NCBI GenBank assembly: GCA_008011715.2
Contig: CP136508.1
Coordinates: forward strand, 2,294,001-2,358,000
Reading direction: 5' to 3'
Origin: [Empedobacter] haloabium
Lineage (GTDB): Bacteria > Pseudomonadota > Gammaproteobacteria > Burkholderiales > Burkholderiaceae_D
Length of the DNA stretch: 64,000 nucleotides
In this document: piece after piece, positions 4,829-50,984 of the stretch
How the letters are laid out: the number at the start of each line of letters is the position of its first letter
How positions within the stretch are numbered: position 1 is the first letter of the stretch
Notes under the pieces: generated by a model
The model's database searches: none
The model's input: only the letters and a program-made list of their open reading frames with translations
What the model was told of the DNA's origin: nothing
Position numbers and translations under genes: made by a program

Positions 4829-6250
4829 ATGAGCGGATCGGTCAATGAATTGCGTGAAATCAGCCCGGCGTCCCGTGCCATCGGGGCGGACGGGCAGGGC
4901 GATGCCGCGCTGCCAACCGTGCCGGCCGCCGACAAGCCACGCGACCCGGTCCGCCTGACCTTCGGCCTGCTCTGGCTCAGCGAAGCCGCCTTCGATTTCG
5001 GCTCCACCTTGATCAGTTTCGCCATCGGCGTGTGGATCTACGGCCAGACCGGCTCGGTCCAGGACTATTCGTTGTCGGTGCTCGCCGCCGCCGTGGCCTC
5101 GATGCTCGTCATGCCGTTCGCGGGCACGTTCGCGGATCGCTACGACCGCCGCGCGGTGGTCGCAGGGTGCGACCTGGCCGCGGTGGCGGCCACCGCCGCC
5201 ATCGTGCTGTTCTTCTTCGTCAGCCGCCTGGGTGTCGAGGTGCTGTACCTGTACACCGCACTGTCCGCCGCCATCGCATCGTTGCGGCGCTGCGCGATCC
5301 GCGTCGTCGTCAGCACCATCGTGCCCAAGGAGCGCTTCACCCAGGTCAGCGGGTTCTCCGGGATGTCGCGCGCTGTCGTGCAGGTCGTTGCCCCCAGCGC
5401 GGCCGGCCTCCTGATGGCGCGAGCAGGATTGCCCGGGGCGATGACGCTGCACCTGGGATTGCTGGTCGGCGGTGCCTTGCTGGCGTTCGCCGCCCTGGCG
5501 CGGGCGCGCGCCGCGCTGCGCGGCTGCCATGCGTCCGGACGCTCCTTCGCGCACAGCGCACGCGCCAGCTTCCTCGGCGCGCTGGGCTACCTGAAGGACA
5601 GCCCCCTGATGCGCAGCCTGCTGCTGTACGGCGCGCTGGTGCAGTGCCTGTTGGTGCTGGCGACCGTGATGCTGACGCCGATGGTGCTGGCGACGCATTC
5701 CTCCAGGGTGCTGGGCCTGGTGATGTCGATCGGCGCCGCCGGCGCTCTGGCCGGCTCGCTGCTGGCCGCCACGGCGATCATCAGGCGCCACCTGATGCTG
5801 TGGGTGCTGGTGTGCGACGCCATCCAGTCCGCCGCCATCCTGGTGGCCGGACTGACGACGACACCGCTGGTGTGGTGCGTCGCCGCGTTTGCCTGCCTGT
5901 TCTGCGGCAGCGCTTCCGTCGCCTGCTCCGGCGCGCTGTGGATGCGCAAGGCTCCGCTGGCGCATCAGGGCAGCGTGTTCGCGCTGCTGTCGGCGTCGAA
6001 CCTCCTGGTGATGAGCCTTGTGCTGCTGGTCGGCGGCTACCTGGCCGACGCGGTGCTGGAGCCTGCGCTGGCCGACGGCGGCGCGTGGCGCCACACGGTC
6101 GGCGACTGGTTCGGCACCGGCAAGGGGCGCGGCATCGGCTTGCTGTTCTTCGGTGCCGGTGCCTGCGGTCTGCTGGTGAGTGGCCTGGCCCTGGCCAGTC
6201 GCGATTTGCGCCGGCTGGAGCAACTCGTGCCGGAGCGTCCGGACGATTGA
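4829..6250 (+). CDS. MFS transporter, likely lipopeptide exporter
   Basis: A 473-residue membrane protein of the major facilitator superfamily (MFS_3-like). After a 40-residue polar N-terminus come about 11-12 hydrophobic segments. The loop motif GTFADRYDRRAVV (about residues 97-110) is the usual conserved MFS loop between helices 2 and 3. The long polar insert near residues 410-430 is extracellular or a loop. It ends 76 bases before the first NRPS gene on the same strand, so co-transcription is likely, and export of the peptide or self-protection is the natural role. No strong ribosome site precedes ATG 4829. Substrate specificity cannot be read from the sequence. Confidence 0.88.
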   Translation: MSGSVNELREISPASRAIGADGQGDAALPTVPAADKPRDPVRLTFGLLWLSEAAFDFGSTLISFAIGVWIYGQTGSVQDYSLSVLAAAVASMLVMPFAGTFADRYDRRAVVAGCDLAAVAATAAIVLFFFVSRLGVEVLYLYTALSAAIASLRRCAIRVVVSTIVPKERFTQVSGFSGMSRAVVQVVAPSAAGLLMARAGLPGAMTLHLGLLVGGALLAFAALARARAALRGCHASGRSFAHSARASFLGALGYLKDSPLMRSLLLYGALVQCLLVLATVMLTPMVLATHSSRVLGLVMSIGAAGALAGSLLAATAIIRRHLMLWVLVCDAIQSAAILVAGLTTTPLVWCVAAFACLFCGSASVACSGALWMRKAPLAHQGSVFALLSASNLLVMSLVLLVGGYLADAVLEPALADGGAWRHTVGDWFGTGKGRGIGLLFFGAGACGLLVSGLALASRDLRRLEQLVPERPDD

Positions 6251-6326
6251 TCGCGCAGTGGGCGCAGCCAGCCATCCGCCCCCTGCGTCTGTTTTCAATG
6301 AACCATCGATAAGGAAGTCTCAGCCC

Positions 6327-17051
<10,725 letters not shown>

Positions 17052-20000
17052 CACACCGGCCGTGGCGCTGGACCTGGCCGACCTGTCGGTCGAGCGGCTG
17101 CGCGGTGCGCAGACCAGCGCCACCTTCGACCTGGCGCTCGATTTCGAAGAGGTCGGCGAGCGCATCGTCGGCCAGCTCAACTACGCCACGGCGCTGTTCG
17201 ACGCCGCCACCGTGCGGCGCCATTGGGGCTACCTGCACGCCATGCTGCGCGCAATGGTGGCAGACGAGCGCCAGCGCGTGCACGACATCGCGCTGCTGGA
17301 CGAGACAGAGCGCACGCTGCTGCTGGAAGGCTTCAATGCCACCCGGCGCGAGCGTGGGCCGGCCGAACCGGTACACCGGCTGTTCGAACGGCAGGCGGCC
17401 GCGCGACCGGATGCGCTGGCGCTGGTACACGATACCCACCAGCTGAGCTACGGCGCCCTCAACGAACGCGCCAACCGGCTGGCCCATCACCTGCGCGCGC
17501 TGGGAATCGGGCCGGACGCGCGGGTGGCCTTGTACATGGAGCGCGGCATCGACGTCATCGTCGCGATGCTGGCGACGCTGAAGGCGGGCGCCGGCTACGT
17601 GCCGCTGGATCCGTCCCAGCCCGCCGAGCGGTCGGCGCACCTGCTGGCGGACTGCGCCCCCATGGCGGTGCTGACCCACGCCGCCTTGCGCACCAGCCTG
17701 CAGGCGCCGGCGGGCTGCCACGTCGTCGCCGTCGGCGGCGAGGACTGGGCCGGCCTGCCCGGCCACGATCCGGACCCCGCCACGGTCGGCGTGGAGGCGT
17801 CGCACCTGGCCTACGTGATCTACACCTCCGGCTCGACCGGCACGCCGAAGGGCGTGCAGGTCGAGCACCGCCAGCTGTGGCACCAGTTGGCGGCGCTGCA
17901 CGAGCTGTACGACGTGACGCCGGCCGATCGGGTACTGCAGTTCTGCGCGCTGACCTTCGACGTGTCGGTCGAGGAGATCTTCGGCACCCTGCTGCATGGC
18001 GCCACGCTGGTGCTGCGCACCGAGGCATGGGTCACGGATCCGGCCAGCTGGTGCCGGCTGTGCGCGCGGCACGGGCTGACGATCGCCAACCTGCCGACCT
18101 TGTTCTGGCAGCAGCTGGCACTGGAGCCGGACGCGCGGATTCCCGCGCACCTGCGCCAGATCGTCATCGGCGGCGACGCGGTCGCGGCGAGCGCGCTGGA
18201 AGCGTGGTGGCGCCGGCCGGGGCATCGCCCGGCGCTGGCCAATGCCTACGGGCCCACGGAAACGACGATCAATGCCACCGTCGCCCGTTGCGCGCCGACG
18301 GACGCGCCGGGCAGCATCGGCCGGCCCGTGCCGGAAGGCCGCATCTACGTGCTGGACGGCGCGCACCAGCCGGTGCCGCTGGGCGTGGCCGGCGAGATCC
18401 ATGTGGGCGGCGCGCACGTCGCGCGCGGTTACCTGAACCGCCCCGAGCTCGATGCCGAGCGCTTCCTGCCCGATCCGTTCGTGCCGGGCGGCCGCATGTA
18501 CCGCACCGGCGACCTGGGGCGCTGGCATGCCGACGGCACCGTCGAGTTCCTCGGCCGGAACGATTTCCAGGTCAAGCTGCGCGGTTACCGCATCGAGCTG
18601 GGCGAGATCGAGGCGCACCTGGCGCGGCTCGACGGCGTGCGCGCGGCGGCCGTGCTGGCGCGCGAGGACCGTCCCGGCGAAAAGCGCCTGGTGGCCTACG
18701 TGGTCGGCACGAGCGACGCGGCACGCCTGCGCGCGCAGCTGGCCGAGCAGTTGCCGGACTACATGGTACCGGCGGCCTACGTGACGCTGGACGCGCTGCC
18801 GTCTACGGCCAACGGCAAGCTGGATCGCCGCGCGCTGCCGGTGCCGGACGAGGGGGCGCTGGTGCAGCGTGTGCACGAGGCCCCGCAGGGCGAGATCGAA
18901 ACGGTCCTGGCCCGGATCTGGGCGGAGCTGCTGGGCATCGCGCAGGTGGGACGCCAGGACAGCTTCTTCGAGCTGGGCGGCCACTCGCTGCTGGCCGTAC
19001 GGCTGGTGTCGCAACTGCGCCAGCAGCTGGGCGTGGAGCTGCCGCTGGCCGCGTTGTTCGAATCGCCGCGGCTGGCCGAGCTGGCGCGCGAGGTGGCCAT
19101 GGCCGCGCGCACCACGCTGGCGGCGATCACGCCGGCCGACCGTACGACGCCGCTGCCGCTGTCGTATTCCCAGCAGCGGCTGTGGTATGTGACGCAGATC
19201 GATGCGCAAGCCCACACGGCCTACCATATCCCGGGCGCGCTGCGCCTGCGCGGTGCCCTCGACCAAGCGGCATTGCAGGCGGCCGTGGCCCGCGTCGTCG
19301 AGCGCCACGAGATCCTGCGCACCCGTTTCGTCACCCTGGCCGGCCAACCACGCCAGGTCGTCGACGCGGCGCAAGGCTTCACGCTGCAGTACAGCGACGT
19401 GGCCGGCGTGCCGGCCGAGACGCTGCGCCAGCTCTGTCATGACGAGGCCACCGCACCGTTCGACCTGGCACACGGCCCGCTGCTGCGCGGCCGCCTGCTG
19501 CGCCTGGCCGACGACGACCACCTGCTGCTGGTGACGCTGCATCACATCATCGCCGACGGCTGGTCGCTGAGCGTGCTGGCGCGCGAGGTGTCGGCGCTGT
19601 ACGAGGCGTACCTGCGCGGCGCGCCCGACCCGCTGGCGCCATTGCCGATCCAGTATGGCGACTACGCGGCCTGGCAGCGCGAGTGGCTGCAAGGACCGGT
19701 GCTGCAACAGCAGCTGGCGTATTGGGTGGGGCAGTTGCAGGGCGCGCCGGCACTGCTGGCGCTGCCGACCGACCGGCCCCGACCCGACACGCAGGATTAC
19801 CGCGGCGCCACGCTGCCGGTTGCGCTGGATGAAGGGCTGGGGCGCGCGCTGGCCGTGCTGGGCCAGCGCCACGGCACGACGCTGTACATGACGGTATTGG
19901 CCGCGTGGGCCGCCGTGCTGGCGCGCCTGTCCGGCCAGGCCCAGGTGGTGATCGGCAGCTCCGAGGCGGGGCGCAACCGCGCCGAACTGGAGCCGCTGAT

Positions 20001-22292
20001 CGGCTTCTTCGTCAACGCCCAGGCGATCCGCTTCGACCTGGAGGGCGACGTCAGCGTCGCGGCGCTGCTGGCGCAAGCGCGGCAGCTCGCCCTGCAGGCG
20101 CAGGCCCATCGCGACGTGCCCTTCGAGCAGGTTGTCGAGGCCGTGAATCCGCTGCGCTCGATGGCCTACAACCCGATCTACCAGGTGCGGCTGGCCTGGC
20201 AGAACACGCCCGAGGTGCGCCTGGACCTGGCAGGGCTCGGCCTGGACAGCGTGGGCAACCAGGCCGGCAGCGCGCAGTTCGATCTGTCGCTGGACCTGGA
20301 GCAGGCCGGTGACCGGATCGTCGGCCAGTTGAACTACGCCACGGCGCTGTTCGACGAGGACACGATCCGGCGTCACTGGGGTTACCTGGAGGCGATGCTG
20401 CGGGCGATGGTGGCGGACGACGGCCAGCAGGTCGATCGGATCGCGTTGCCGGACCAGGCGGAACGGCAGCTGCTGCTGCATGGCTTTAACCAAACACGCC
20501 GCGACTACCCGGCCGAAACGCTGATCCACGCGCTGTTCGAAGCGCAGGCGGCCCGCCAGCCGGAGGTGCTGGCGGTGGCCTGCGAAGGCACTGAACTGAG
20601 CTATGGTGCCCTCAACGAGCGCGCCAACCAGCTGGCGCACCACCTGCGCAGGCTGGGCGTGCGGCCGGACGAGCGGGTCGCCGTGTTCGTGGAACGCAGC
20701 GTGGACATGGCGGTGGCGCTGCTGGCCACGCTGAAGGCGGGCGGCGCCTGCGTGCCGCTCGATCCGGTCCACCCGGACGAGCGCCTCGCGCACATGCTGG
20801 CGGACAGCGCGCCGGTGGTGGTGCTGACCCAGGCCGGCCTGCAAGGGCGCCTGCCCGCGGCGCGGGGTGCCGTCGTGCTGGACGCCCAGCCATGGCAGCA
20901 CTCGGCCTGGGCGGCCGAGCCGGCGAGCGATCCGGCGCCGGCCACGGTCGGCCTGCATGCGGCGCACCTGGCCTATGTCATCTACACGTCCGGCTCCACC
21001 GGTACGCCGAAGGGCGTGATGGTCGAGCACCGCAACGTGCTGACGTTCCTGCGCGGTCTGGAAGAACGCATCCACGGCGTGGCGCCCGACTGCCGCCGCA
21101 TCGCCTGGAACTCGTCGTTCGGCTTCGACATGGCCGTCAAGGCCTGGGGCCAGCTGGCGCTGGGCCGCAGCGTCCATATCGTACCGGAGCGCACCCGCCT
21201 GGACGCCGACGCGCTGCTGGCCTTCATCGAGCGGCACGCCATCGAGGCGATGGAATGCACGCCGTCGCACCTGCGCATGCTGCAGGGCGCCGGCTTCCCG
21301 CAGCAGCGCGGCCGCACACTGCGCAAGCTGCTGCTGGGCGGCGAGGCGATCGACGCGGCGACGTGGCGCGCGCTGGCGGCCCACGACGGCATCGGCTTCT
21401 TCAATATGTATGGGCCGACCGAGTGCAGCGTGGACGCGGCCTGCGGTCCCGTGGCCGGAGACGTGCCGCACATCGGCCAGGTGATGCCGAACGCGCGCAT
21501 CTACCTGCTGGATGCGCACGGCGAGCCGGTACCGCTGGGCGCCGCCGGCGAGATCTGCATCGGCGGTGCCGGCGTGGCGCGCGGCTACCTGCACCGTCCC
21601 GAACTGACGGCGGAGCGCTTCGTGCCCGATCCGTACGCCGGCATCGACGGTGCGCGCATGTACCGCACCGGCGACCTGGGGCGCTGGCGCGCGGACGGCA
21701 CCATCGAATACCTGGGCCGCAACGATTTCCAGGTCAAGGTGCGCGGCTTCCGCATCGAGCTGGGCGAGATCGAAGCGCGCCTGGCGCGCCTGCCCGGCGT
21801 ACGCCAGGCGGTCGTGCTGGCGCGCGAGGACAGTCCCGGCGACCAGCGCCTGGTCGCCTATGTCGTGGCGGACCCGCAGGTGCCGGCGCCCGACCCCGCC
21901 GCGCTGCGTGCCCAGCTGGCCGCGCAGCTGCCGGAGTACATGCTGCCCTCGTCCTATGTGGCGCTGGAGCGGTTGCCGGTGACGCCGAACGGCAAGCTCG
22001 ATCGCAAGGCCTTGCCGGCGCCGGAAGGCCAGGGGCTGGTGCAACGTCCGTACGAGGCGCCGGCCGGCATGGTGGAGCAGGCGCTGGCGGCCATCTGGGC
22101 CGAACTGCTGGGGGCCGAGCGGGTGGGCCGCCACGACAACTTCTTCGAACTGGGCGGTCATTCCGCCCTGGCGATCCAGGTGATTTACCAGATGAGCGCA
22201 AGGCAGTTGCAGGCCGACGTGCAGATGGTCTTCAACGCGCCGAGCCTGGCGCACCTGGCCGCCGCAACCATTCAACTTGAGGAGGTCGAGCT

Positions 22293-25200
22293 GTGAGTGC
22301 ACTGGAATTGCTGGACAAGCTCGATGCCCGTGGCATCGCGGTGCGGGTGAAGGGCGACAAGCTGGCGCTGATCGGCGACCAGCGCCAACTGGCCGACGAT
22401 GGCCTGATGGCATCGCTGCGTTCGCACAAGGAGGACCTGATCGCGCTGCTGAAGCGGCGCGCCGGCAGCGACGCGCAGGGCGGCATCCCGGCCGGGACGC
22501 AGCACATCGTGCCCGACATGCTGCCGCTGGTGGCGCTGGCGCCGGCGCAGATCGAGCGGCTGGTGCAGGCAACGCCGGGCGGTGCGGCCAATATCCAGGA
22601 CATCTATCCGCTGGTGCCGCTGCAGGAGGGCATCCTGTTCCATCACCGCGTGCAGAGCGCGGCCGACACCTACGTGCTGCCCACCTTGCTGCGCTTCGAC
22701 AGCCGCCAACGGCTGGACGGCTTCATGGCGGCACTGAACGAGGTGATCGCCCGCCACGACATCTTGCGCACCGCCGTGCACTGGGAAGGCCTGGCCGAAC
22801 CGGTGCAGGTGGTGTGGCGCCAGGCGCGTGTGGAGGTACGCACGCTGGAGCGGGCGCCGCAAGGTAGCGACGCGGTGACGCAGCTGCAGGCGCATGCCGA
22901 TCCGCGCCGCGAGCGGCTCGACGTGCGCCAGGCGCCGATGCTGCGCGCCTACGCGATGTTCGATGCCGCCACCGGCACCTGGCTGATGCAATTGCTGCAC
23001 CACCACCTGGTGCTGGATCACACTGCCTCCGAGCTGTTGATCGGCGAGATCGCGCTGCTGCTCCAGGGCCGGCGCACCGAGCTGGAACCGCCGGTCCCGT
23101 TCGGCCGCTTCGTGGCCCAGGTACGGCAAGGCATGGGCGCGGCGGACCATGAGGCGTACTTCCGGCGCGAGCTGGGCGACGTGGCCGAACCCACGGCGCC
23201 GTTCGGCCTGATGGACGTGCAGGGCGACGGCTCGGCCGTGCTGCGCTATGGCGCGCGCATGGAACCGGCGCTGGCGGCACGGCTGCGGCGGCAGGTCAAG
23301 TCGCGCGGCGTCGGCGCCGCCAGCCTGTTCCACCTGGCGTGGGCCCGCGTGCTGGCGTGCTGCGTTGGCCGCGACGACGTGGTGTTCGGCACCGTGCTGT
23401 TCGGCCGCATGCAGGGCGCGGCCGACACGGCGCGGGCGCTGGGCATGTTCCTCAACACGCTGCCGCTGCGCGTGCGCATGGCCGACACCGTCGAGCAGGG
23501 CCTGAAGCGCACCCAGGCCGCGTTGGCCGAACTGCTGCGGCACGAGCATGCGCCCTTGACGCTGGCACAGCGCTGCAGCGCGCTGCCGGCCAACGTGCCG
23601 CTGTTTTCCAGCCTGCTGAACTACCGCTACAGCCATGAGGGCGAAGGCGAAGGTAAGGTACTGGAAGGCATCGAGCACCTGGGCGGACATGACCGTACCA
23701 ATTATCCGTTCGTGCTGCACGTGGACGACCTGGGGACAGGCTTCGAGCTGACCGCGGAGGTCGATCACAGCGTGGCCGCGCCACGCGTGGTGGCATTCAT
23801 GCTGACGGCGCTGGAAGGGCTGGTGCGGGCACTGGAACACGACCCGGCCCTGCCGCTGGCCGCGCTGGACGTACTGCCGCCGGACGAGCGCCGGCAGGTG
23901 CTGCACGACTTCAACGCCACCGCCACCGGGTATCCAGCTGCGCTGCTGCACGAACTGGTCGAACGGCAGGCGGCACGCACGCCGGCCGCCACGGCCGTGC
24001 GCTTCGAAGGCACGGAACTCGGTTATGGAGAACTCAATGCCCGCGCCAACCAGCTGGCGCGCCACCTGCGCGGCCTGGGCGTGGGTCCCGACCGGACGGT
24101 CGGCGTGCTGCTCGAGCGCAGCGAGCACCTGGTGATCGCGCTGCTGGCGGTGGTCAAGGCGGGCGGCGCCTACGTGCCGCTGGACCCGTCGTATCCGGAC
24201 GAGCGCCTGGCCCACATGCTGCGCGACAGCGCGCCGCTGGTGCTGCTGACCCAGGAAGCCCTGGCGGACCGGCTGGCGGCCCCACAGCTCGTACTCGATA
24301 CGGCGGCGACGCAGGCCCTGCTGGCCGCTCGCGAAGACACCAACCTGGACCCGGCCGGCCTGGCAGCGGACCACCTGGCCTACGTGATCTACACGTCCGG
24401 CTCGACCGGCCAGCCGAAGGGCGTGATGAACAGCCACCGCGGCATCGTCAACCGCCTGCAATGGATGCAGCAGGCCTATGCGCTGGGGCCACGGGACGTG
24501 GTGCTGCAGAAGACGCCGTTCGGCTTCGACGTCTCGGTCTGGGAGTTCTTCTGGCCCCTGATGACGGGTGCGCAACTGGTGCTGGCGCGGCCGGAAGGAC
24601 ACAAGGACCCGCACTACCTGGGCGCGGTGATCGAGGCGGCCGGCGTGACGACCTTGCACTTCGTGCCGTCGATGCTGCAGGTGTTCCTGAGCCAGCCGGA
24701 CGCCGTGGCACGCAGCGCCAGCGTGCGGCAAGTCATGTGCAGCGGCGAGGCGCTGCCGGCCGCGCTGGCGCACGCCGCGCGCGCGCAGCTGCCGCAGGCG
24801 CAGCTGCACAACCTGTACGGACCGACCGAGGCGGCGGTGGACGTCACCGCCTGGACCTGCACGGGCGAGGAAGGCACGGCGGTGCCGATCGGCCGGCCGA
24901 TCGCCAACACGCGCATGTACGTGCTGGACACGCATGGCCGTCCGGCGCCGCTGGGCGTGGCGGGCGAGCTGTATATCGGCGGCGTGCAGGTCGCGCGCGG
25001 CTACCTGAACCTGCCGCGACTGACCGAGGAACGCTTCCTGGCCGACCCGTTCGTCGTGGGTGGACGCATGTACCGCACCGGCGACCTGGGGCGCTGGCGC
25101 CCCGATGGCGCCATCGACTACCTGGGCCGCAACGACTTCCAGGTCAAGCTGCGCGGCTTTCGCATCGAGCTGGGGGAGATCGAGGCGCAACTGCTGCGCC

Positions 25201-25771
25201 AGCCGGGCGTGCGCGAGGCGGTGGTGCTGGCGCGGCCGGACGGCGCCGGCCTGGTGGCCTACCTGGTCGCCGCCCCGGCACCGGAACCGGCCGACCTGCG
25301 CGCGCAACTGGGCCGGCACCTGCCGGACTACATGATCCCGGCCGCCTACGTCACGCTGGACGCGCTGCCGCTGGGGCCGAACGGCAAGCTCGATCGCAAG
25401 GCCTTGCCGGCGCTGGACGGCGCCGCGTTCGGCCGCCAGGCGTTCGAGGCACCGCTGGGCGAGGTGGAACAGGCGCTGGCGGCGATCTGGAGCGAGCTGC
25501 TGGGCATCGAACGGATCGGCCGGCAAGACCACTTCTTCGAGCTGGGCGGCCACTCGCTGCTGGCGATCCGCCTGCTCGAGCAGCTGCGCCAGCGCGGCTG
25601 GTCGCTGGACATCCGCGCCCTGTTCGCCCATCCAAGCCTGGCCGGGATGGCCGCGGCCATCGAACTGGCCCGCGGCGCCGAGACCCCTGCCATGGACGTG
25701 CCGCCCAATGCGATACCGGAGAGCTTCGCGGCATCAAACGAACCACACGACGACATCGAGGAATTCAGACT

Positions 25772-25775
<4 letters not shown>
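22293..25775 (+). CDS. NRPS module 6: docking-C/E-A-T, serine
   Basis: GTG 22293 overlaps the previous stop by four bases and has a strong GAGGAGGT site six bases upstream. The first ~55 residues ([17 protein letters not shown]...) are a TubC-type beta-hairpin docking domain that should grasp the acidic tail of the preceding NRPS. Then come a dual condensation/epimerisation domain (residues about 85-520; [11 protein letters not shown] at 102, HHLVLDH near 237), an adenylation domain (about 540-1035) and a carrier domain (Ser near 1088). The adenylation pocket is DVWHMSLVDK, the serine code. The A-T part is a near copy of module 2 in DNA. The dual domain should invert residue 5. The 1160-residue protein ends DDIEEFRL, another acidic docking tail. 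Confidence 0.96.
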
Positions 25776-34026
<8,251 letters not shown>

Positions 34027-34027
<1 letters not shown>

Positions 34028-35007
34028 TGATTACACTACTGGACGAACACACCATGGAGAGCCTCTGCGCGGACGCGCCTTTCGAGGTGACGGCCACGCC
34101 CGGCTTCCCCTACCTGATCGAGGCCGGCGCCGGCGCCACCCACTGCCAGCGCTGGTTCGGCGCCGCGGCGTCCGGGCTGGTCGGGCAACTGCGCCACACG
34201 GGGGCGCTGCTGCTGCGGGGCTTCCCGTTGCGCAGCGCCGCCGACTTCCGCGCCGCGGTCGGCGCGATGGCGCCGCAGCTGCGCGGCTATGCCGGCGGCA
34301 CGTCGCCGCGCAGCCAGGTCGCCGAGGGCGTCTACACCTCGACGGAATACCCGAAGCAGCTGGAGATCCCGCTGCACAACGAGATGTCGTACAGCTGCCA
34401 GTGGCCGGAGTTGCTGTACTTCTTCTGCGCCGTGGCGCCAGCCACGGGCGGCGAGACGCCGCTCGCCGACTCGCGCGGCATCCTGGCGCGCATGCCGTGG
34501 GACATCGTGGAGGAGTTCGAACGGCGCCAGTTGATGTACGTGCGCAACCTGGCCTCGGCCCAGTCGCGCTACAACTCGTGGACCAAGGCCTTCGAGACGA
34601 CCGACCAGGCCAGGGTCGAGGCCTACTGCCGCGACATGGACATCGGCTATGCATGGCAGCCCGACGGCGGCCTGCGCATCCAGGAAGTGCGGCCGGCGCT
34701 GCGCACGCATCCGGTCACCGGCGAGCGGGTCTGGTTCAACCAGGTCCACCTGTGGCATGCGTCGAACACGCCGATGGCCAGCAACGTCAGCGCGCAGATC
34801 GAGGCGGGCCTGCCGATGGCGGCCTACTACGGCGACGGCGGCCGCATCGACAACGACACCCTGGCAACCGTGCGCGCGGTCATGAACGCGGAAAAGCGGC
34901 TGTTCCGCTGGCAGCAGGGCGACCTGCTGATGGTGGACAACGTGCTGGCGGCGCATGGCCGCATGCCGTTCGACGGCCCGCGCCAGATCCTGGTGGCGAT
35001 GTCGTGA
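34027..35007 (+). CDS. TauD/AsnO-type Fe(II)/2-oxoglutarate hydroxylase 1
   Basis: A 326-residue non-heme iron oxygenase. The iron triad reads His117-x-Glu119 (LHNEMSY) and His310 (AAHGRMPF), with Arg319 positioned to bind 2-oxoglutarate. HxE instead of HxD is the pattern of AsnO, VioC and clavaminate synthase, and the overall fold is that of the TauD/SyrP group that beta-hydroxylates amino acids for NRPS pathways. Its ATG shares one base with the NRPS stop (TGATG), so translation is coupled. Together with the next gene it could hydroxylate the acidic residues of modules 5 and 8, either free or carrier-bound. Which enzyme serves which module cannot be read from the sequence. Confidence 0.88.
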
Positions 35008-35048
35008 CACGCCACCCCTAATCCATCAACCATGAACGACGGGAATCC

Positions 35049-35966
35049 ATGAACATCAAAGGTACGCAAGGCGAGTCCCTCGCCAACTGGATCAAGCACA
35101 ATCGCGGCGACATCGACGCGGCGCTGTGGAGCGACGGCTACGTGCTGTTCCGCGGCTTCGACGTGGGCGGCCTCGCAGGCTTCGAGGAGTGCGCCGGGGC
35201 GGCGTGCAACACCCTGTACAAGCATTACGGCGATTTGCCGCTGGCCAGCGCCAGCGAGAACGTCTACTTCGCCACGCCCTATCCGAAACACCTGGAAATC
35301 CAGTTCCACAACGAGGCGTCGCACACTCACACCTGGCCGTCGCGCCAGCTGTTCTTCTGCCTGGAGCCGGCACCGCAGGGCGGCGAGTGGACGCTGTCGG
35401 ACGGGCGCAAGGTGCTCGAGGCCATGCCGGCCGAAATGCTGGCGCGCTTTCGCGAGCAGGGCCTGGTGTACCGGCGCCGCTTCATCCGCGGGCTGGACGC
35501 CTCATGGCAGCAGTTCTTCAAGGTGAACGACCTGCAGGAGCTGCGCGAGAAGATGGCGCCCACCGGCCACGAGATCGACGCACCGTCGGAAAACGACGTC
35601 ACGGTGTCGTTCCGCACCCATGCGGTGCTGCCGCTGCCGGAGCGCGGCACCGAGGCGTGGTTCAACCAGATTCTCTTGCACCATCCGGACGCGCTGCCGC
35701 AGGAGGTCGGCGACCTGCTGCGCAAGCACTTCCCGCGCGACAAGTTCCCGCGCACGGTGTTCTTCGGCGACGGCAGCGCGATCCCGGCGGAATGGGTCCG
35801 CAAGGTCGACGAGGTGCTGACCGAGTGCTCGATCCGCATCCCCACGCAGGCCAACGACGTCCTGCTGGTCAACAACCTGCTGATGGCGCACGGGCGCCTG
35901 CCGTATGCCGGCAACCGCCAGATCCGGGTCGCGCTGGGCGACATGCGCACGCACGGTACGGCCTGA
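35049..35966 (+). CDS. TauD/SyrP-type Fe(II)/2-oxoglutarate hydroxylase 2
   Basis: A 305-residue oxygenase with His87-x-Glu89 (FHNEASH) and His281 (MAHGRLPY), followed by basic residues (Arg290, Arg293) for 2-oxoglutarate. It resembles the SyrP/TauD proteins found beside lipopeptide synthetases and is a distant relative of the preceding gene rather than a recent copy. It starts 41 bases after that gene with a GGGAA site upstream of ATG 35049. The likely job is beta-hydroxylation of aspartate or a similar residue in the peptide. Substrate and timing are inference. Confidence 0.87.
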   Translation: MNIKGTQGESLANWIKHNRGDIDAALWSDGYVLFRGFDVGGLAGFEECAGAACNTLYKHYGDLPLASASENVYFATPYPKHLEIQFHNEASHTHTWPSRQLFFCLEPAPQGGEWTLSDGRKVLEAMPAEMLARFREQGLVYRRRFIRGLDASWQQFFKVNDLQELREKMAPTGHEIDAPSENDVTVSFRTHAVLPLPERGTEAWFNQILLHHPDALPQEVGDLLRKHFPRDKFPRTVFFGDGSAIPAEWVRKVDEVLTECSIRIPTQANDVLLVNNLLMAHGRLPYAGNRQIRVALGDMRTHGTA

Positions 35967-36013
35967 GGCGGCCGGATGACCGATCACTTCAACCCATTTT
36001 CCCGGAGAGCGGC

Positions 36014-37195
36014 ATGATTCAACGGCAGCACGTCGTCAACGATTTCTTTGCCGAGGCGGAAGCGATGCGCTCGGCCTACGACCTGAAGGTCAAGGACCCC
36101 TACCGCCAGACCGTCAGCTGGCAATACTTCTGCGCGCCGCAGATGTACACCTACCTGCGCACGGTGCCGCAGCAGGTGATCCCGGAGCCGCTGTTCGCGC
36201 GCTTCATGCAGCACATGAAGCAGTGGTGCATCGAGCACGTGGGCCTGCTGCCGATGGGCGTGCCCAACCTGCACCTGATGGTGAACGGCTGCACCCTGGG
36301 GTTGCACAGCGACTTCCAGAACGGCACCTTGGGCTACGTCTACTCGCTGACGCGCTGGCAGACCCGCAAGTTCGCCGGCGGCGAGACGCTGCTGCTGCGC
36401 GACGGCATCCCCAGCTACAAGAAGCACCACGTGCAGGGCGAGTCGCTGTACGAGCTGGTGCCGGCGCAGTTCAACCAGCTGCTGCTGTTCGACGACCGCA
36501 TCGTGCACGGCACCCAGACCATCGAAGGCAGCATGGACCCGCGCGAAGGCCGCATCGCCTTTGTCGGCCACCTGCGGCCGACGTCGCCCGTCGTCAAGGG
36601 CGCGCTCGATGCGACCGCCGCGCGCAGGGTCATCCTCGACCTGCAGCGCGACCTGGCCGGGCAGCTGAAGGACCGCGAGGACTGCAAGGACGTGCAGGGC
36701 ACCGTCACGTTCCGGCTGGAGGTCGGCGCATCGGGCCAGGTCGAATCGGTGACGGTCTTGATCGACCACCTGGTGACGCCCGCCGCCGGCTACGCCGCGT
36801 CGGCGCCGGTCGACGAGGTCCGGCGCATCGTCCAGCAAGGCATCGCCGCGCTCAAGTTCCCCGACGGCGCCGGCAAGTCGACCGTGACAGCGGCCGTGCT
36901 GGTGCCGCTGCCCGACCTGCGGCCCATCGAGATCGCCGTGCCGCATGCGGGTCGCGCCGCGATGCTGCGCGAGGTGCTGCGGGCCCAGCTGAAGGAACTG
37001 GAGGCGCAGGGCTTCCAGATCGAACAGGCGGGCGACGAGTTCCTGATGCGCGAACCGCTGGCGGGAACCATCCGCATCGAAGCAACGCGCATCGTGGCGG
37101 CGTTCGATCCGCCGATGTGGGTGCCGTCGCAGCGCGAGCACTTCCAGGCCAACCTGAGGGACAGCCTGGGTATGCTGGCGCGGGCCGGCGGTTGA
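36014..37195 (+). CDS. prolyl-hydroxylase-like oxygenase with a C-terminal extension
   Basis: ATG 36014 has GGAGAG four bases upstream; the open frame reaches back to 35126 only as a shadow of the previous gene. Residues about 80-190 carry a prolyl-4-hydroxylase-like double-stranded beta-helix: His98-x-Asp100 (LGLHSDFQ), GGETLLLRD, and His165 (IVHGTQ) with basic residues after it. Residues about 230-310 (TVTFRLEVGASGQVESVTVL and on) resemble the C-terminal domain of AgmX/TonB-like proteins, an unusual partner. The length is 393 residues. With three proline-activating modules upstream, it is the best candidate for making the hydroxyproline of the peptide. The C-terminal part has no obvious role. 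Confidence 0.72.
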   Translation: MIQRQHVVNDFFAEAEAMRSAYDLKVKDPYRQTVSWQYFCAPQMYTYLRTVPQQVIPEPLFARFMQHMKQWCIEHVGLLPMGVPNLHLMVNGCTLGLHSDFQNGTLGYVYSLTRWQTRKFAGGETLLLRDGIPSYKKHHVQGESLYELVPAQFNQLLLFDDRIVHGTQTIEGSMDPREGRIAFVGHLRPTSPVVKGALDATAARRVILDLQRDLAGQLKDREDCKDVQGTVTFRLEVGASGQVESVTVLIDHLVTPAAGYAASAPVDEVRRIVQQGIAALKFPDGAGKSTVTAAVLVPLPDLRPIEIAVPHAGRAAMLREVLRAQLKELEAQGFQIEQAGDEFLMREPLAGTIRIEATRIVAAFDPPMWVPSQREHFQANLRDSLGMLARAGG

Positions 37196-37204
37196 GACCC
37201 GCGC

Positions 37205-38599
37205 ATGGGCTGGCTCGATAGCGTGCTGCTGGGCGGTGCCGTCCTGTTCGCCCTGGCGGCGGCGCCGGGGCGGGCGGCGCGACCGGCTCCCGCCCTGGCG
37301 ATGCTGGGGGTGTTGGCGGCAGGCTGCGTGCTGCAAGTCCTGGTGGAAGGCTGGTACTGGCAGTTCCTGCCGGCCTACGCGCTGATCCTGTTGGCGGCGG
37401 TGCGCATGGCAAGGGGCAGCACAGGCGGGCGTCGAAGAGAATGGGCACTGCGCGCCACCCAACTGGCCGGCGCCGGCACCCTGGCCGCCAGCTGGGTATT
37501 CCTGCCGGTGCCCGAGCTGCCGGCGCCGCGTGGACCGTATGCCGTCGGCACCCAGGTGTTTCGCTGGGTCGACCCGACGCGCCCGGAACCGGCCACCGAC
37601 GCTCCTGGCGACCGGCGCAACCTTGTCGTGCAGGCCTGGTATCCGGCCGCGCACGGCGCCGTCGGCGCACGTGCGGCCTACATCGATGGCCTGGGGCACC
37701 TGCCGGACTTCGTCGCGGCGGTGCCGCGCCTGTTCCTGGCGCACTACGACCGCATCGACACGCACGCCATCGTGCGCGCCCCCGTACCGGGCGGGCGGCA
37801 CAAGTGGCCCGTGGTGCTGTTCTCGCCAGGGTATGGCGCGTCGCGCGCGTTCTACACGACGCTGGTCGCCGACCTGGCCAGCCACGGCTTCGTGGTCCTT
37901 GCCGTCGACCACCCGTACGAAGCGGCGCTGACGCAGCTGGCCGACGGACGCCTCGCCACGCCGGTCGAGCGCTTCGTCGCCAACGATCCCGAGCGGCTGG
38001 CCTATATGGGCGAGCACCTGCGGACCCGCAGCGCGGACCTGCGCGCCGTGCTGGATCGCCTGGACCGGCCGGACGGCCTGGGCAACCTGTCCGGACGGCT
38101 CGACCTGGCGCGCATCGCGGCGGTGGGGCACTCGTTCGGTGGCGCCGCCTCGGTCGCCGTGATGGCCACGGACGCGCGCGTCGCGGCGGCGGCCAATATC
38201 GACGGCACGCTGTACGGCGGCCTGGCCGAGCGGCGTCTGGACCGGCCGTTCCTGCTGATCGAGAGCGATCATGGCGAGACGGGCCATTCGGCCAGGTACC
38301 TGCAGGGCAACCGGCGCCTGCTTGCCAATCTGCGCGCCGCCGGCTTCCGCTACCAGATCGGCCACGCGAACCACTACAGTTTCACGGACGTGCCGTTGTT
38401 GCTGTCGCCGCCGGCGCGCTGGCTGCTGGCGCGCTTCATGGGCGGTTCACGCGGTCCGGCCGAGAGCGTGCAGGCCACCGGCGACATCCTGGTGGCATTC
38501 CTGCGCCAGGCGGGGCAGGGCCAGCCGGCCCTCGTGCAGGCCGCAGTGCGGCGCCACCGCGATATCGAGGGCGGACGCACCGGTCCGGCCGGCGGGTGA
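37205..38599 (+). CDS. membrane-anchored alpha/beta hydrolase (PAF-acetylhydrolase-like)
   Basis: A 464-residue protein that starts nine bases after the oxygenase stop. Three hydrophobic segments (about residues 4-20, 29-45 and 53-63) and a fourth near 80-95 precede an alpha/beta hydrolase domain. Catalytic features are FSPGYGAS (oxyanion region, about residue 204), the nucleophile motif GHSFGG (near 305), an acid after LLIESDHGE and a late His in HANHYS. This is the pattern of platelet-activating-factor acetylhydrolase-like esterases. It is the last gene of the run beginning with the exporter. It could hydrolyse a lipid or the lipopeptide itself; this cannot be decided from sequence. Confidence 0.75.
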   Translation: MGWLDSVLLGGAVLFALAAAPGRAARPAPALAMLGVLAAGCVLQVLVEGWYWQFLPAYALILLAAVRMARGSTGGRRREWALRATQLAGAGTLAASWVFLPVPELPAPRGPYAVGTQVFRWVDPTRPEPATDAPGDRRNLVVQAWYPAAHGAVGARAAYIDGLGHLPDFVAAVPRLFLAHYDRIDTHAIVRAPVPGGRHKWPVVLFSPGYGASRAFYTTLVADLASHGFVVLAVDHPYEAALTQLADGRLATPVERFVANDPERLAYMGEHLRTRSADLRAVLDRLDRPDGLGNLSGRLDLARIAAVGHSFGGAASVAVMATDARVAAAANIDGTLYGGLAERRLDRPFLLIESDHGETGHSARYLQGNRRLLANLRAAGFRYQIGHANHYSFTDVPLLLSPPARWLLARFMGGSRGPAESVQATGDILVAFLRQAGQGQPALVQAAVRRHRDIEGGRTGPAGG

Positions 38600-48036: not shown

Positions 48037-50154
48037 TCAGCCGGCCGGCGCGAGGGCGCGGCGCAGGTCGTCCGCGCTGGCCGGCTTGGTCAGGTGCACG
48101 TCGAAACCGGCCGCGCGGGCCCGCTCCACGTCCGCCTTCTGGCCGTAGCCGGTCAGTGCCACCAGCCGCAGCGGCGCGGCGCCCGCTTCCTCGCGCAGCG
48201 CGGCGGCCAGCGCATAGCCGTCCATGTCCGGCAGGCCGATGTCGAGGATCGCCACCGCCGGCGGATGGCGCCGGCCCAGCGCCAGCGCCTCGGCCGCGCT
48301 GTGCGCCACGTGCACGTCGTGGCCGATCTGGCGCAGCAGCGCCGCGCTGGTGACGGCAGCGTCCTCGTTGTCGTCCACCAGCAGCACGCGCTGGGCGGGC
48401 ATCGGCGCGTGCGGCGCGCTGTCGGCCGGGCTGGCGGACGATTGCGTCAGCGGCAGCTCCACCTCGAAGCGGCTGCCCTGGCCGGGCCCGGCGCTGTGCG
48501 CGCTCACGCGGCCGCCGTGCAGCTCGACGATGCGGCGCACGATGGCCAGGCCCAGGCCCAGCCCGCCGGTGCGCCGGGCCAGCTGCTGCGGCGCCTGGAA
48601 GAACGGATCGAACACGTGTTCCAGCAACGCCGCGCTCATGCCGACGCCCGTGTCGCTGACGGTCAGGCAGGCATGGCCCGGCGTCGTCGTCAGCGTCACC
48701 TGCGCGCTGGCGCCGCCGAAGCGGGCCGCGTTCGACAGCAGGTTGTTCAGCACTTGGGTCAGGCGGCTGTCGTCGCCCCGCACCCAGACGTCGATTGGCG
48801 CGGCCAGCGCGATCTGCTGGCCCGGGAACGCGGCCACCGCCTGGCGCACGATGTCGGCCAGGTTGACGGGGCGCAGCTCCAGCTGCAGCTTGCCGGAGGT
48901 GATGCGCGACACGTCCAGCAGGTCGTCCACCAGCCGGCGCAGGTGGTTGACCTGGCGCCGCAGCACGGCGCGTTCGCGCTTGGTCGTCGCCTCGTCGCGC
49001 AGGTCCATCAGGTCGAGCGAGGCGACGATGGGGCTGAGCGGATTGCGCAGCTCATGCCCCAGCACGGCCAGGAACTCGTCCTTGGCGCGGCCCGCCTCGC
49101 GTGCCCGGGCCAGCGCCTGTTCCTGCTGGTCGAGCGCCTCGCGCAGCGACGCCAGCAGGCGCGAACGTTCCTCCTCGTGCGCCGTGTGCTGGCGCGCGGC
49201 CGCCGTCAGCGCCTCGCCGATCGTGCGGAGCTCGCGAATGCGCGAGGGAGGCACGCTGACGGCGGCGCCGGCGCCCAGCGCGGACGCGGCCGATTGCAAC
49301 TGGCGCGTGGCGCGCACCATGCGCGCGGCCAGCAGCGAGGCCAGCGCGATACAGGCCGCCAGCGAGCCGGCGATGCCCATGCCGTACATGGCAAAGCTGT
49401 GCAGGAAGGCCGAGCGCAGCAGGGCCGTCGGCGTGCCCACGGCCACGGTCCAGCCGTAGCGTGACAGCCGCGTATAGGCCGCCGTCACGTCCATCCCTTC
49501 CAGGGTGGTGCTGGCACCCACCCCTTCCGGCAACGGGTGGTGCAGCAGGCGCGTCAGGCTGGGGCTGGGCGGGCCGCCCACGCGCGCCCGGTGATCGGCG
49601 GAGCGCGCCACGATCAGGCCCGAGCTGTCCAGCACCGAAATGACGGCGCCGGGCGGCACCACCTGGCGCTGAATCACGCGCAGCAGCCGGTCGGGGCGGA
49701 TCACGGCCGTCAGCACGTACAGGCGCCCCGCCGCGTCGCTCACCGGCACCCGCACGGGCAGCGCGACGCGGCCGCCGGCACCGCGTGCGACGTGGCCGAC
49801 CACCGCATGACGCACGGCCAGCGCCTGGCGCAGGCTGGCCGGGTCGGCGATCGGCACGGCCGGCGCGCCATAGGGGGCGGTAGTGCGGAACAGCATGTTG
49901 CCGTTGCCATCGGTCAGGATCACGGACAGCCACTCGGGCTGCGTTGCGGCCTGCAACCGGGCCACGGCGTAGAAGGCGGCGACGTCGCCTGCCGCCAGCG
50001 CGGGCGTGCGCGCCATGCCGGTCAGCGTGGCGACGACGCCGTCGAGTTCCGCGTCGGCGGCGCTCGACAGTGCCCGTGCCAGGTCCAGCATCGAGCGTTC
50101 CTGCTCGCGTTGCTGGTACTCGCTGGCGGCATGGATGCTCCACACGCCCAGCAA
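48037..50154 (-). CDS. hybrid sensor histidine kinase with receiver domain
   Basis: A 705-residue sensor from TTG 50154. Order: extracytoplasmic dCACHE-like sensor (residues about 30-235), TM helix (about 255-280), HAMP-like linker and coiled coil (280-350), HisKA with LGHELRNPLSPI (phospho-His near 365), HATPase with NLLSNAARFGG, DTGVGMS and GGLGLGLAIVRRIVELHGG, and a C-terminal receiver (VLLVDDNEDAA, AILDIGLPDMDGY with the phospho-Asp, HLTKPAS). The same frame continues upstream with a clear membrane helix (IALRTLLILLTGLGLLPLA) as far as a TAA stop, but there is no ATG, GTG or TTG in it; the first possible codon is ATT 50211. The real start is therefore probably upstream of 50154, or the sequence has an error there. 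The signal is unknown. Confidence 0.85.
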   Translation of the reverse strand: MLGVWSIHAASEYQQREQERSMLDLARALSSAADAELDGVVATLTGMARTPALAAGDVAAFYAVARLQAATQPEWLSVILTDGNGNMLFRTTAPYGAPAVPIADPASLRQALAVRHAVVGHVARGAGGRVALPVRVPVSDAAGRLYVLTAVIRPDRLLRVIQRQVVPPGAVISVLDSSGLIVARSADHRARVGGPPSPSLTRLLHHPLPEGVGASTTLEGMDVTAAYTRLSRYGWTVAVGTPTALLRSAFLHSFAMYGMGIAGSLAACIALASLLAARMVRATRQLQSAASALGAGAAVSVPPSRIRELRTIGEALTAAARQHTAHEEERSRLLASLREALDQQEQALARAREAGRAKDEFLAVLGHELRNPLSPIVASLDLMDLRDEATTKRERAVLRRQVNHLRRLVDDLLDVSRITSGKLQLELRPVNLADIVRQAVAAFPGQQIALAAPIDVWVRGDDSRLTQVLNNLLSNAARFGGASAQVTLTTTPGHACLTVSDTGVGMSAALLEHVFDPFFQAPQQLARRTGGLGLGLAIVRRIVELHGGRVSAHSAGPGQGSRFEVELPLTQSSASPADSAPHAPMPAQRVLLVDDNEDAAVTSAALLRQIGHDVHVAHSAAEALALGRRHPPAVAILDIGLPDMDGYALAAALREEAGAAPLRLVALTGYGQKADVERARAAGFDVHLTKPASADDLRRALAPAG

Positions 50155-50369
50155 TGCCAGCGGCAGCAGGCCGAGTCCCGTCAGGAGGATCAGCAGCGTG
50201 CGCAGTGCAATGGCTGTCTCTTATGAACGGCCGGCGAGGGCGCATGGGTGTCCTGTCGAAAAACCCATTATACGGGCTCGGCGTGCCCATGGATGGGACA
50301 GCGGCCAGGCGAGCGCCGCCGCGGCCGCCGCTGTGGCAAAAACGTAATTCGACCGTGACGGAGGCACCG

Positions 50370-50978
50370 ATGCATATCGCCTTGCTGGGGGATTCGGTAT
50401 TCGACAATGCCGCCTACGTGGCGCCGGGAATGGACGTGGCGGCGGCGCTGCGACGGCGGGCGCCTGGCTGGCGCGTGACCCTGCTGGCGCGCGACGGTGC
50501 CGTGCTGGCTGGCGTGCCGGCCCAGCTGGAGCGCCTGCGCGCGCTCGAGACGGTGCCCGACGAGCTGGTCGTCAGTTGCGGCGGCAACGACATCCTCGGC
50601 CTGCAGGCCTTGCTGCACGGCCCGGCCGGCACGCTGCTGGCGGCACTGGAGCAGCTGGCCGCCTGGCGCGACGATTTCCGGGTCCGCTACGCCGGCATGC
50701 TGGAGGCGCTGCTGGCCACCCGCCTGCCCGCCACGGTCTGCACGATCTACGACGCGGTGCCGGGCCTGAACCCGGCGCTGCGCTGCGCCGTCGGCATCTT
50801 CGACGACGTCATCGCTTTCGAGGCCGGACGGCGCGGCGTGCGCGTGCTGGAGTTGCGGGCCGTCTGTACCGGGCCCGCCCACTACTCGGCCCGCTCGCCG
50901 ATCGAGCCCTCGGCCGAGGGCGGCGACCGGATCGCCGCCGCCATCGCCGGCCTGGTGGGCATGCCACGGATACAATAA
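50370..50978 (+). CDS. SGNH/GDSL hydrolase family protein
   Basis: ATG 50370 has GGAGG five bases upstream. The 202-residue protein starts MHIALLGDSVFDN (block I, nucleophile Ser9), has GGNDILGL (block III, near residue 72) and ends with SPIEPSAEGGDRIAAAI where the usual DxxHP block V would be, but without the catalytic His. It may be a divergent or impaired esterase. There is no signal peptide. It is 6 bases upstream of the RNase Z gene and probably co-transcribed. The region 50155-50369 between it and the divergent kinase holds their promoters. Confidence 0.8.
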   Translation: MHIALLGDSVFDNAAYVAPGMDVAAALRRRAPGWRVTLLARDGAVLAGVPAQLERLRALETVPDELVVSCGGNDILGLQALLHGPAGTLLAALEQLAAWRDDFRVRYAGMLEALLATRLPATVCTIYDAVPGLNPALRCAVGIFDDVIAFEAGRRGVRVLELRAVCTGPAHYSARSPIEPSAEGGDRIAAAIAGLVGMPRIQ

Positions 50979-50984
50979 GCGCCC

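What the first reader, a model, noticed from the sequence alone, without database searches (positions are those of the whole stretch)
4829..38599. Eight-module NRPS line whose predicted peptide matches empedopeptin
Pocket residues read by eye give Pro1, Ser2, Pro3, basic-type4, acidic-type5, Ser6, Pro7, acidic-type8. Dual C/E domains follow modules 1, 2, 5 and 6, the first C domain is placed for N-acylation, and two HxE oxygenases, a prolyl-hydroxylase-like enzyme and tandem thioesterases are present. From memory, empedopeptin is an acylated, calcium-dependent, lipid-II-binding cyclic octapeptide with two hydroxyaspartates, arginine, two serines and prolines including hydroxyproline, from an organism now placed near Massilia. 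The order and decorations agree. No MbtH-like gene or fatty-acid gene is in the window.
Basis: partly seen in the sequence, partly recalled or inferred. Interest (0 to 1): 0.9.

Follow-up and report, generated by a model that had tools for sequence, protein, structure and literature searches.

The report
Empedopeptin antibiotic cluster, third oxygenase
This stretch is a bacterial gene cluster of the already described type that makes the antibiotic empedopeptin; what is worth following is a conserved third oxygenase-like gene that the published account does not mention, and a reading-frame break in the largest synthetase gene as this genome was deposited.

Summary
The window holds an eight-module NRPS whose A-domain codes read Pro-Ser-Pro-basic-acidic-Ser-Pro-acidic, with dual C/E domains in modules 2, 3, 6, 7, tandem TEs and two TauD oxygenases. 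This is the published empedopeptin cluster type; in Massilia sp. YMA4 empA-E were inactivated and the product identified by LC-MS/MS (PMC8069584). Product identity here is inference from a known kind.

Three additions. (1) As deposited, the empE frame is broken near 16.56 kb; G028, G029, G101 and G664 are open there. An assembly indel is likelier than real inactivation, unproven. (2) A 393-aa gene (36014-37195) occurs in the same 6 of 392 family genomes as TauD1, next to it in all 6, with H98/D100/H165/R180 in 57 of 57 aligned sequences. It has no Pfam match at E 0.001, and no term searched for in the published main text points to it. It is my candidate for the Pro7 hydroxylase; its fold is unproven. 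(3) A domains of modules 1/7 and 2/6 are homogenised within each genome.

The parts
4829..6250 (+). MFS transporter, probably export or self-protection; same place in G028, G029, G101 and G664
   Evidence: Pfam MFS_1 4.7e-19; tblastn at 62-85% identity in the four relatives whose upstream side was fetched
6327..16570 (+). EmpE-like NRPS, first part: C(starter type)-A-PCP, C/E-A-PCP, C/E-A-PCP and the N-terminal part of the module 4 C domain (the open frame runs on to 17051 out of register)
16520..16570 (+). Place where the reading frame of the EmpE-like gene breaks, inside the module 4 C domain
   Evidence: C-domain matches in two frames; G028 protein matches frame +3 up to 16565 and frame +1 from 16561; G028, G029, G101, G664 open across it
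16561..22296 (+). EmpE-like NRPS, second part: rest of module 4 and module 5
22293..25775 (+). EmpD-like NRPS, module 6 (C/E-A(Ser)-PCP); TubC_N docking match below the Pfam cut-off at the N terminus
25772..34027 (+). EmpC-like NRPS, modules 7 and 8 with two thioesterase domains; TubC_N docking domain at the N terminus
34027..35007 (+). TauD1, HxE-type 2OG oxygenase; EmpB by inferred gene order; inferred Asp5 beta-hydroxylase
   Evidence: Pfam TauD 1.8e-38; H-N-E motif; mutant data of PMC8069584
35049..35966 (+). TauD2, HxE-type 2OG oxygenase; EmpA by inferred gene order; inferred Asp8 beta-hydroxylase
   Evidence: Pfam TauD 9.4e-32; H-N-E motif; mutant data of PMC8069584
36014..37195 (+). Third oxygenase-like protein (393 aa), inferred Pro7 hydroxylase
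   Evidence: H98-x-D100...H165...R180 in 57 of 57 aligned sequences; linked to TauD1/TauD2 in 6 of 6 genomes; no Pfam or NCBIfam match for the window protein at E 0.001
37205..38599 (+). Alpha/beta hydrolase (PAF-acetylhydrolase-like); hits in G028 and G029, none at E 1e-20 in the fetched G101 and G664 stretches; role in the pathway open
   Evidence: Pfam PAF-AH_p_II 9.9e-23; tblastn

Best explanation
An empedopeptin biosynthetic gene cluster. A starter-type C domain on EmpE is expected to put a 3-hydroxy fatty acid on Pro1. EmpE (modules 1-5), EmpD (6) and EmpC (7, 8) build Pro-Ser-Pro-Arg-Asp-Ser-Pro-Asp, dual C/E domains turn residues 1, 2, 5 and 6 to D, and the tandem TEs release the ring. 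TauD1 and TauD2 hydroxylate the two Asp residues; the third oxygenase-like protein most likely hydroxylates Pro7; the MFS pump most likely exports the product. Shown here: domains, codes, C types, gene order, conservation. Shown by others in YMA4: need for empC, empD, empE, the product, the effect of empA and empB. Inferred: every activity in this strain, the residue each oxygenase acts on, and the role of the third gene (about 0.6). As deposited the empE frame is broken, so the line would end in module 4 unless the break is a sequencing error.
For: Third gene: the same 6 of 392 family genomes hold it (E 1e-20) and TauD1 (E 1e-90), none one alone at these cut-offs (the TauD1 cut-off was put in the gap seen, where the fourth hit has 1.2e-152 and the fifth 3.2e-75); 10 of the 34 third-gene clusters P0002-P0035 share an exact longest-contig length with one of the 29 TauD1 clusters P0001 and P0122-P0149; a homologue in Lysobacter sp. 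BMK333-48F3 (P0018), named as the tripropeptin source in PMC4154637 and PMC11451712 (passages). In YMA4 the analogues that the text singles out in the empA and the empB insertion mutants have Pro7 unmodified or are described without hydroxylated Pro7, as expected if plasmid insertions are polar on a downstream gene.
Against: No product measured; the supplementary tables of the paper were not seen. The frame break in empE. For the third gene: no Pfam match of its own at E 0.001, and at E 1 only TonB_C at 0.15; 2OG-FeII_Oxy_3 matches in only 2 of 57 relatives, best 0.0011, and 2OG-FeII_Oxy_4 in 1; no oxygenase match in 5 and in 10 homologues scanned apart; profile-profile comparison with a set of 2OG-FeII_Oxy_3 proteins, whole and N-terminal part, found nothing; no solved relative by profile; of the 86 weaker clusters P0036-P0121 none shares a contig length with the 120 listed TauD1 clusters (of 1793 found), so the family is probably not confined to this pathway. 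The published text speculates that EmpA and EmpB act together.
Confidence: 0.93

Rival explanations
1. A tripropeptin- or plusbacin-type line rather than empedopeptin.
For: Same gene order, same substrate types at modules 3-8 and the same oxygenase genes in G101 (5,186,898 bp, the contig length of a Collimonas fungivorans protein) and G664, whose codes give Thr-Pro-Pro-basic-acidic-Ser-Pro-acidic; the Pep2Path paper reports that order for C. fungivorans Ter331 (passages).
Against: Modules 1 and 2 of the window read Pro and Ser, not Thr and Pro.
Confidence: 0.03
2. The empE frame break is real and the cluster is a dead or non-producing copy in this strain.
For: The break is in a single-contig assembly and not in an obvious homopolymer; other long NRPS frames of the genome (4731, 2806, 2465 aa) are open.
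Against: A second frame break lies at about 54.62 kb in an unrelated gene of the window, at a short run of G relative to G028, which suggests indel noise; the other emp genes are open and conserved.
Confidence: 0.35
3. EmpA and EmpB alone carry out all three hydroxylations and the third gene has another role (export, resistance, regulation).
For: The published main text names only two dioxygenases; the plusbacin preprint likewise credits two TauD enzymes (passage); profile comparisons do not tie the third protein to known 2OG families.
Against: HxD...H...R in 57 of 57 aligned sequences, linkage in 6 of 6 genomes, three hydroxylated residues against two TauD enzymes, and no hydroxylated Pro7 described in the text for either mutant.
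Confidence: 0.35

Closest known systems
Empedopeptin cluster empA-E of Massilia sp. YMA4 (PMC8069584)
   Same: Eight modules split 5+1+2, predicted order, dual C/E positions, two TEs, two dioxygenase genes
   Different: Deposited empE frame broken here; a third oxygenase-like gene, an MFS gene and a hydrolase gene flank the line here, none mentioned in the main text of that paper by the terms searched; the YMA4 genome itself could not be fetched by name, so whether it has them was not tested
Cluster of Duganella sacchari Sac-22 (G029/L027)
   Same: Gene order; seven readable codes of the same type, four identical and three differing at one residue; TauD1 81%, third gene 78%
   Different: empD lacks the core of its A domain in that assembly
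Tripropeptin-like cluster of Collimonas fungivorans (G101) and relative G664
   Same: Substrate types of modules 3-8, gene order, TauD1, TauD2, third gene
   Different: Thr1-Pro2; no hydrolase hit; module 2 A domain is a near copy of module 3 (94.2% in G101)
2OG-Fe(II) oxygenases of the prolyl 4-hydroxylase type (Pfam 2OG-FeII_Oxy_3)
   Same: HxD...H...R and a GGE motif in the third gene product (layout of the superfamily recalled)
   Different: No significant profile match for the window protein; about 180 further residues at the C terminus without a family

Membership tests
Empedopeptin biosynthetic cluster | Eight modules in three NRPS genes, 5+1+2 | tested here: met
   with the frame break in the first gene as a caveat
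Empedopeptin biosynthetic cluster | A specificities Pro-Ser-Pro-Arg-Asp-Ser-Pro-Asp | tested here: met
   Ser code also in PMC12283262, Pro reading recalled; Arg4, Asp5 and Asp8 rest on codes identical with those of D. sacchari and on the published predictions, no predictor was run
Empedopeptin biosynthetic cluster | Dual C/E in modules 2, 3, 6, 7; LCL in 4, 5, 8; starter C in module 1 | tested here: met
   motifs (no start printed for module 5) and three clades in the tree, window module 4 left out; starter function by position and separate clade only
Empedopeptin biosynthetic cluster | Tandem TE in the last module | tested here: met
   (two stretches)
Empedopeptin biosynthetic cluster | Two dioxygenase genes after the NRPS | tested here: met
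Empedopeptin biosynthetic cluster | Product m/z 1126.56 and its MS/MS | not testable with these tools
   published for YMA4 only
Tripropeptin cluster | Thr1-Pro2 codes | tested here: not met
2OG-Fe(II) oxygenase superfamily (third gene) | HxD/E...H iron ligands and a basic residue for 2-oxoglutarate | tested here: met
   57 of 57 for H98, D100, H165, R180; that these are the ligands is inferred from the layout
2OG-Fe(II) oxygenase superfamily (third gene) | Significant match to a family profile | tested here: inconclusive
   none for the window protein; 2 of 57 aligned sequences match 2OG-FeII_Oxy_3, best 0.0011; none in 5 and in 10 homologues; hhalign negative
2OG-Fe(II) oxygenase superfamily (third gene) | Double-stranded beta-helix fold | not tested

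The most novel reading that the evidence does not exclude
The third gene founds an undescribed family of iron oxygenases without a Pfam model (233 homologues at E 0.001 among 8000 scored) that hydroxylate proline on or for an NRPS, filling the unassigned Pro hydroxylation step of empedopeptin, tripropeptin and perhaps plusbacin; the 2021 phenotypes of the empA and empB mutants for Pro7 would then be polar effects.
Probability: 0.5. Interest if true: 0.5.

Novelty: already known. Interest (0 to 1): 0.35.

Why it matters
[quoted passage not shown] The cluster type is known. A third conserved oxygenase-like gene would complete the tailoring scheme and can be tested by one deletion. The A-domain-sized copying between modules is a clean natural example of the exchange unit that NRPS engineers look for.

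Tried and rejected
Identifying the strain: the one genome scan gave D. sacchari and four distant loci, and says that records of the window's own genome or near ones may be left out. The window's genome and G028 differ by 1.3% in 16S and are 86.4% identical over 33.7 kb of the cluster, so I take them for different species. A 99%-identical third-gene protein lies in another genome whose longest contig is 6,328,781 bp (P0002), which may or may not be YMA4; two passages of PMC9098870 gave no genome size.

Fold of the third gene: PDB profile search gave only chance matches; Pfam on 5 homologues at E 10 and on 10 at E 1 gave no oxygenase; profile-profile comparison with 19 2OG-FeII_Oxy_3-type proteins, 21 TauD proteins and, as control, 6 A domains was negative for all three, as was the N-terminal part alone against the first two. 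The 2OG set was picked by a motif pattern from 30 loci, so some rows may not be true members.

The PCP tree is not used: my motif search picked the same PCP twice for several modules. The comparison of frame breaks covered 30 and 36 ORFs (77 and 81 kb); its lists of 5 and 4 splits hold joins of neighbouring genes and opposite-strand ORFs, so it is a rough guide only. Some of the 4 may be real breaks in G028; they were not looked at. The break at 54.62 kb was looked at by alignment.

A class-wide sample of 369 genomes held the third gene only in the window's own; too sparse to show distant contexts.

Considered and rejected: a second frame break between empD and empC. ORF starts at 24461 and 25772 share one frame and the genes overlap by 4 bases, as empE and empD do.
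Full report
What is there. The window is base 2,294,001 to 2,358,000 of a single-contig genome of 6,478,808 bases. From 6327 to 34027 run three NRPS genes with eight C domains (one in two pieces), eight A and eight PCP domains and two thioesterase stretches. Two TauD-type oxygenases follow at 34027-35007 and 35049-35966, then a 393-residue protein at 36014-37195 and a hydrolase at 37205-38599. An MFS transporter lies upstream at 4829-6250.

Specificity. Ten-residue codes were taken from an alignment of the A domains: DVQYIAHVVK, DVWHMSLVDK, DVQFVAHVVK, DVENVGAINK, DMKELGMVDK, DVWHMSLVDK, DVQYIAHVVK, DMKELGMVDK. DVWHMSLVDK is named as a Ser code in PMC12283262 (passage); the Pro reading of DVQ..AHVVK is recalled. 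For module 4 (basic) and modules 5 and 8 (acidic) I ran no predictor: these three codes are identical with those of Duganella sacchari (G029), which PMC8069584 says has the same cluster, and that paper predicts Arg4, Asp5 and Asp8 in YMA4. The Pep2Path paper predicted ornithine instead of arginine at module 4 in Collimonas (passages), whose code is the same (G101).

C domains. Modules 2, 3, 6 and 7 start with YPLxPLQxGILFH, modules 4 and 8 with SxAQQRLW, module 1 with neither; the motif search printed no start for module 5. In a tree of the C domains of five lines (window, G028, G029, G101, G664; window module 4 left out because it is split, D. sacchari module 6 not extracted) module 1 stands alone, modules 4, 5 and 8 form a clade, and modules 2, 3, 6 and 7 fall together. 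This matches the published calls for YMA4: dual C/E in 2, 3, 6, 7, giving D residues at 1, 2, 5 and 6.

What is known. PMC8069584 (abstract, results section, first part of methods, legends and passages seen; supplements and figures not seen) describes the cluster in Massilia sp. YMA4: empE five modules 15.9 kb, empD one module 3.3 kb, empC two modules 8.2 kb with two TEs, and two dioxygenases empA and empB; insertion mutants in empC, empD and empE made no empedopeptin. In the window the corresponding lengths are about 16.0, 3.5 and 8.3 kb. The original producer, ATCC 31962, has a draft genome (PMC6838624, whole text); the 2021 paper did not find the cluster in it and suspected the assembly.

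Frame break. The first NRPS gene is not one open frame. The module 4 C domain matches in one frame up to profile position 190 and in another from 201. The G028 protein matches the window in frame +3 up to 16565 and in frame +1 from 16561. G028, G029, G101 and G664 have the gene open across this place. In the window a second gene (PcRGLX/DUF6250, minus strand) is broken at about 54.62 kb relative to G028, at a short run of G. Two breaks in 64 kb favour indels in the sequence over two real mutations, but the break in empE is not in an obvious homopolymer, and other long NRPS frames in the genome are open. I put real inactivation at about one third. D. sacchari's empD and the TauD2 gene of G101 also look damaged in their assemblies.

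The third oxygenase-like gene. The protein at 36014-37195 has no Pfam or NCBIfam match at E 0.001. A search found 233 homologues among 8000 scored candidates (120 listed). In an alignment of 57 sequences (the window's and 56 of the 120 listed), H98, D100, H165 and R180 are present in all 57, with a GGE motif between, the layout of 2OG-Fe(II) oxygenases (layout recalled). Only 2 of 57 members match 2OG-FeII_Oxy_3, best E 0.0011, and one 2OG-FeII_Oxy_4; no oxygenase family matched in 5 and in 10 homologues scanned apart. Profile-profile and PDB profile comparisons were negative. So the assignment rests on the motif and on linkage. The linkage is strong: of 392 family genomes searched with each protein, the same six hold the third gene (E 1e-20 or better) and TauD1 (E 1e-90 or better), none holds one alone at these cut-offs, and the two lie about 1 kb apart with TauD2 between them in all six. 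The TauD1 cut-off lies in the wide gap between these and weaker TauD relatives (39-47% identity) seen. Ten of the 34 third-gene clusters P0002-P0035 share an exact longest-contig length with one of the 29 TauD1 clusters P0001 and P0122-P0149, Lysobacter sp. BMK333-48F3 among them. Of the 86 weaker clusters P0036-P0121 none does with any of the 120 TauD1 clusters listed (of 1793 found), so more distant relatives may serve other pathways.

Why Pro7. The paper says that Asp5, Pro7 and Asp8 are all hydroxylated (one sentence writes Ser7). It describes analogues with OH-Asp5 but unmodified Pro7 and Asp8 in the empA mutant, and with OH-Asp8 or no hydroxyl in the empB mutant, and speculates that the two enzymes act together; the full tables are in supplements that I did not see. 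The mutants were plasmid insertions. If the letters run against transcription, as module order suggests (residues 1-5 from gene E, 6 from D, 7-8 from C), empB is TauD1 and empA is TauD2, and the third gene lies downstream of both. Then EmpB would act on Asp5, EmpA on Asp8, and Pro7 would be lost in both mutants by polarity, which must then be partial for empA in the empB mutant. This is inference: the gene order in YMA4 beyond the lettering, and the presence of the third gene there, were not seen. A preprint on plusbacin also credits only two TauD enzymes for Asp and Pro hydroxylation (PMC11451712, passages). No title or abstract start listed by my searches speaks of a third enzyme, in a library that lacks most subscription journals; the listed papers were otherwise not read for it.

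Copying of A domains. Within the window the A domains of modules 1 and 7 are 94.8% and of modules 2 and 6 97.5% identical, against 85-92% between the window and G028 at these four positions. In G028 the pairs are 96.5% and 99.0%, in G029 modules 1 and 7 88.3%. At DNA level the near identity covers about 1.4-1.8 kb, the A domain, and falls off in the C domain and behind the A domain. In a tree of 39 A domains, modules 4, 5 and 8 group by position in all five lines, but 1 with 7 (window, G028, G029) and 2 with 6 (window, G028) group by genome (support 0.97 to 1.0). In G101 and G664, modules 2 and 3 pair by genome instead (support 0.98 and 0.82). The module 1 C domain is orthologous across the empedopeptin-type and tripropeptin-type lines while its A domain differs in type, so position 1 looks like a replacement limited to the A domain; at position 2 in G101 and G664 both C and A resemble module 3. 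Recombination of A domains is a known theme (search listing only).

Other points. One MbtH gene lies elsewhere, next to another NRPS, and three ACPS-type matches (phosphopantetheinyl transferases) are in the genome, so these helpers need not be in the window. The TubC_N match at the N terminus of EmpC passes the Pfam cut-off (27.4 against 26) and that of EmpD does not (20.2); this fits an E to D to C order.

Verdict. Correctly read, already known as a kind, with a testable open step (the third gene) and a warning about the broken frame.

Noticed in passing
window 16520-16570: Reading frame of the largest NRPS gene is broken inside the module 4 C domain; open in four relatives.
   Followed up: partly
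window 53112-54975 (minus strand): PcRGLX/DUF6250 gene broken at about 54.62 kb relative to G028, at a short run of G.
   Followed up: partly
window A domains of modules 1/7 and 2/6 (A3 motifs at 8166, 27893, 11418, 24390): A domains homogenised within each genome over about 1.4-1.8 kb; the neighbouring C domains are not.
   Followed up: yes
G029 (L036), empD: Module 6 of Duganella sacchari lacks the core of its A domain in this assembly, perhaps a collapse of near-identical modules 2 and 6.
   Followed up: no
G101 (border of L038 and L039), TauD2: TauD2 gene of the Collimonas-type genome appears frame-broken near its C terminus; it matches over nearly full length in G664 and G730.
   Followed up: no
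G000:C1:5017968-5042085 and 2525530-2530098: Two further NRPS loci in the same genome, the second beside the only MbtH match.
   Followed up: no
window 36014-37195, residues about 215-393: C-terminal part of the third oxygenase-like protein has no family; weak TonB_C matches in 4 of 57 aligned sequences, best E 0.015.
   Followed up: no
window 49944-51956 and 59687-61693: GDSL lipase-like protein, metallo-beta-lactamase-fold protein and a TonB-dependent receptor downstream; no link to the cluster shown.
   Followed up: no
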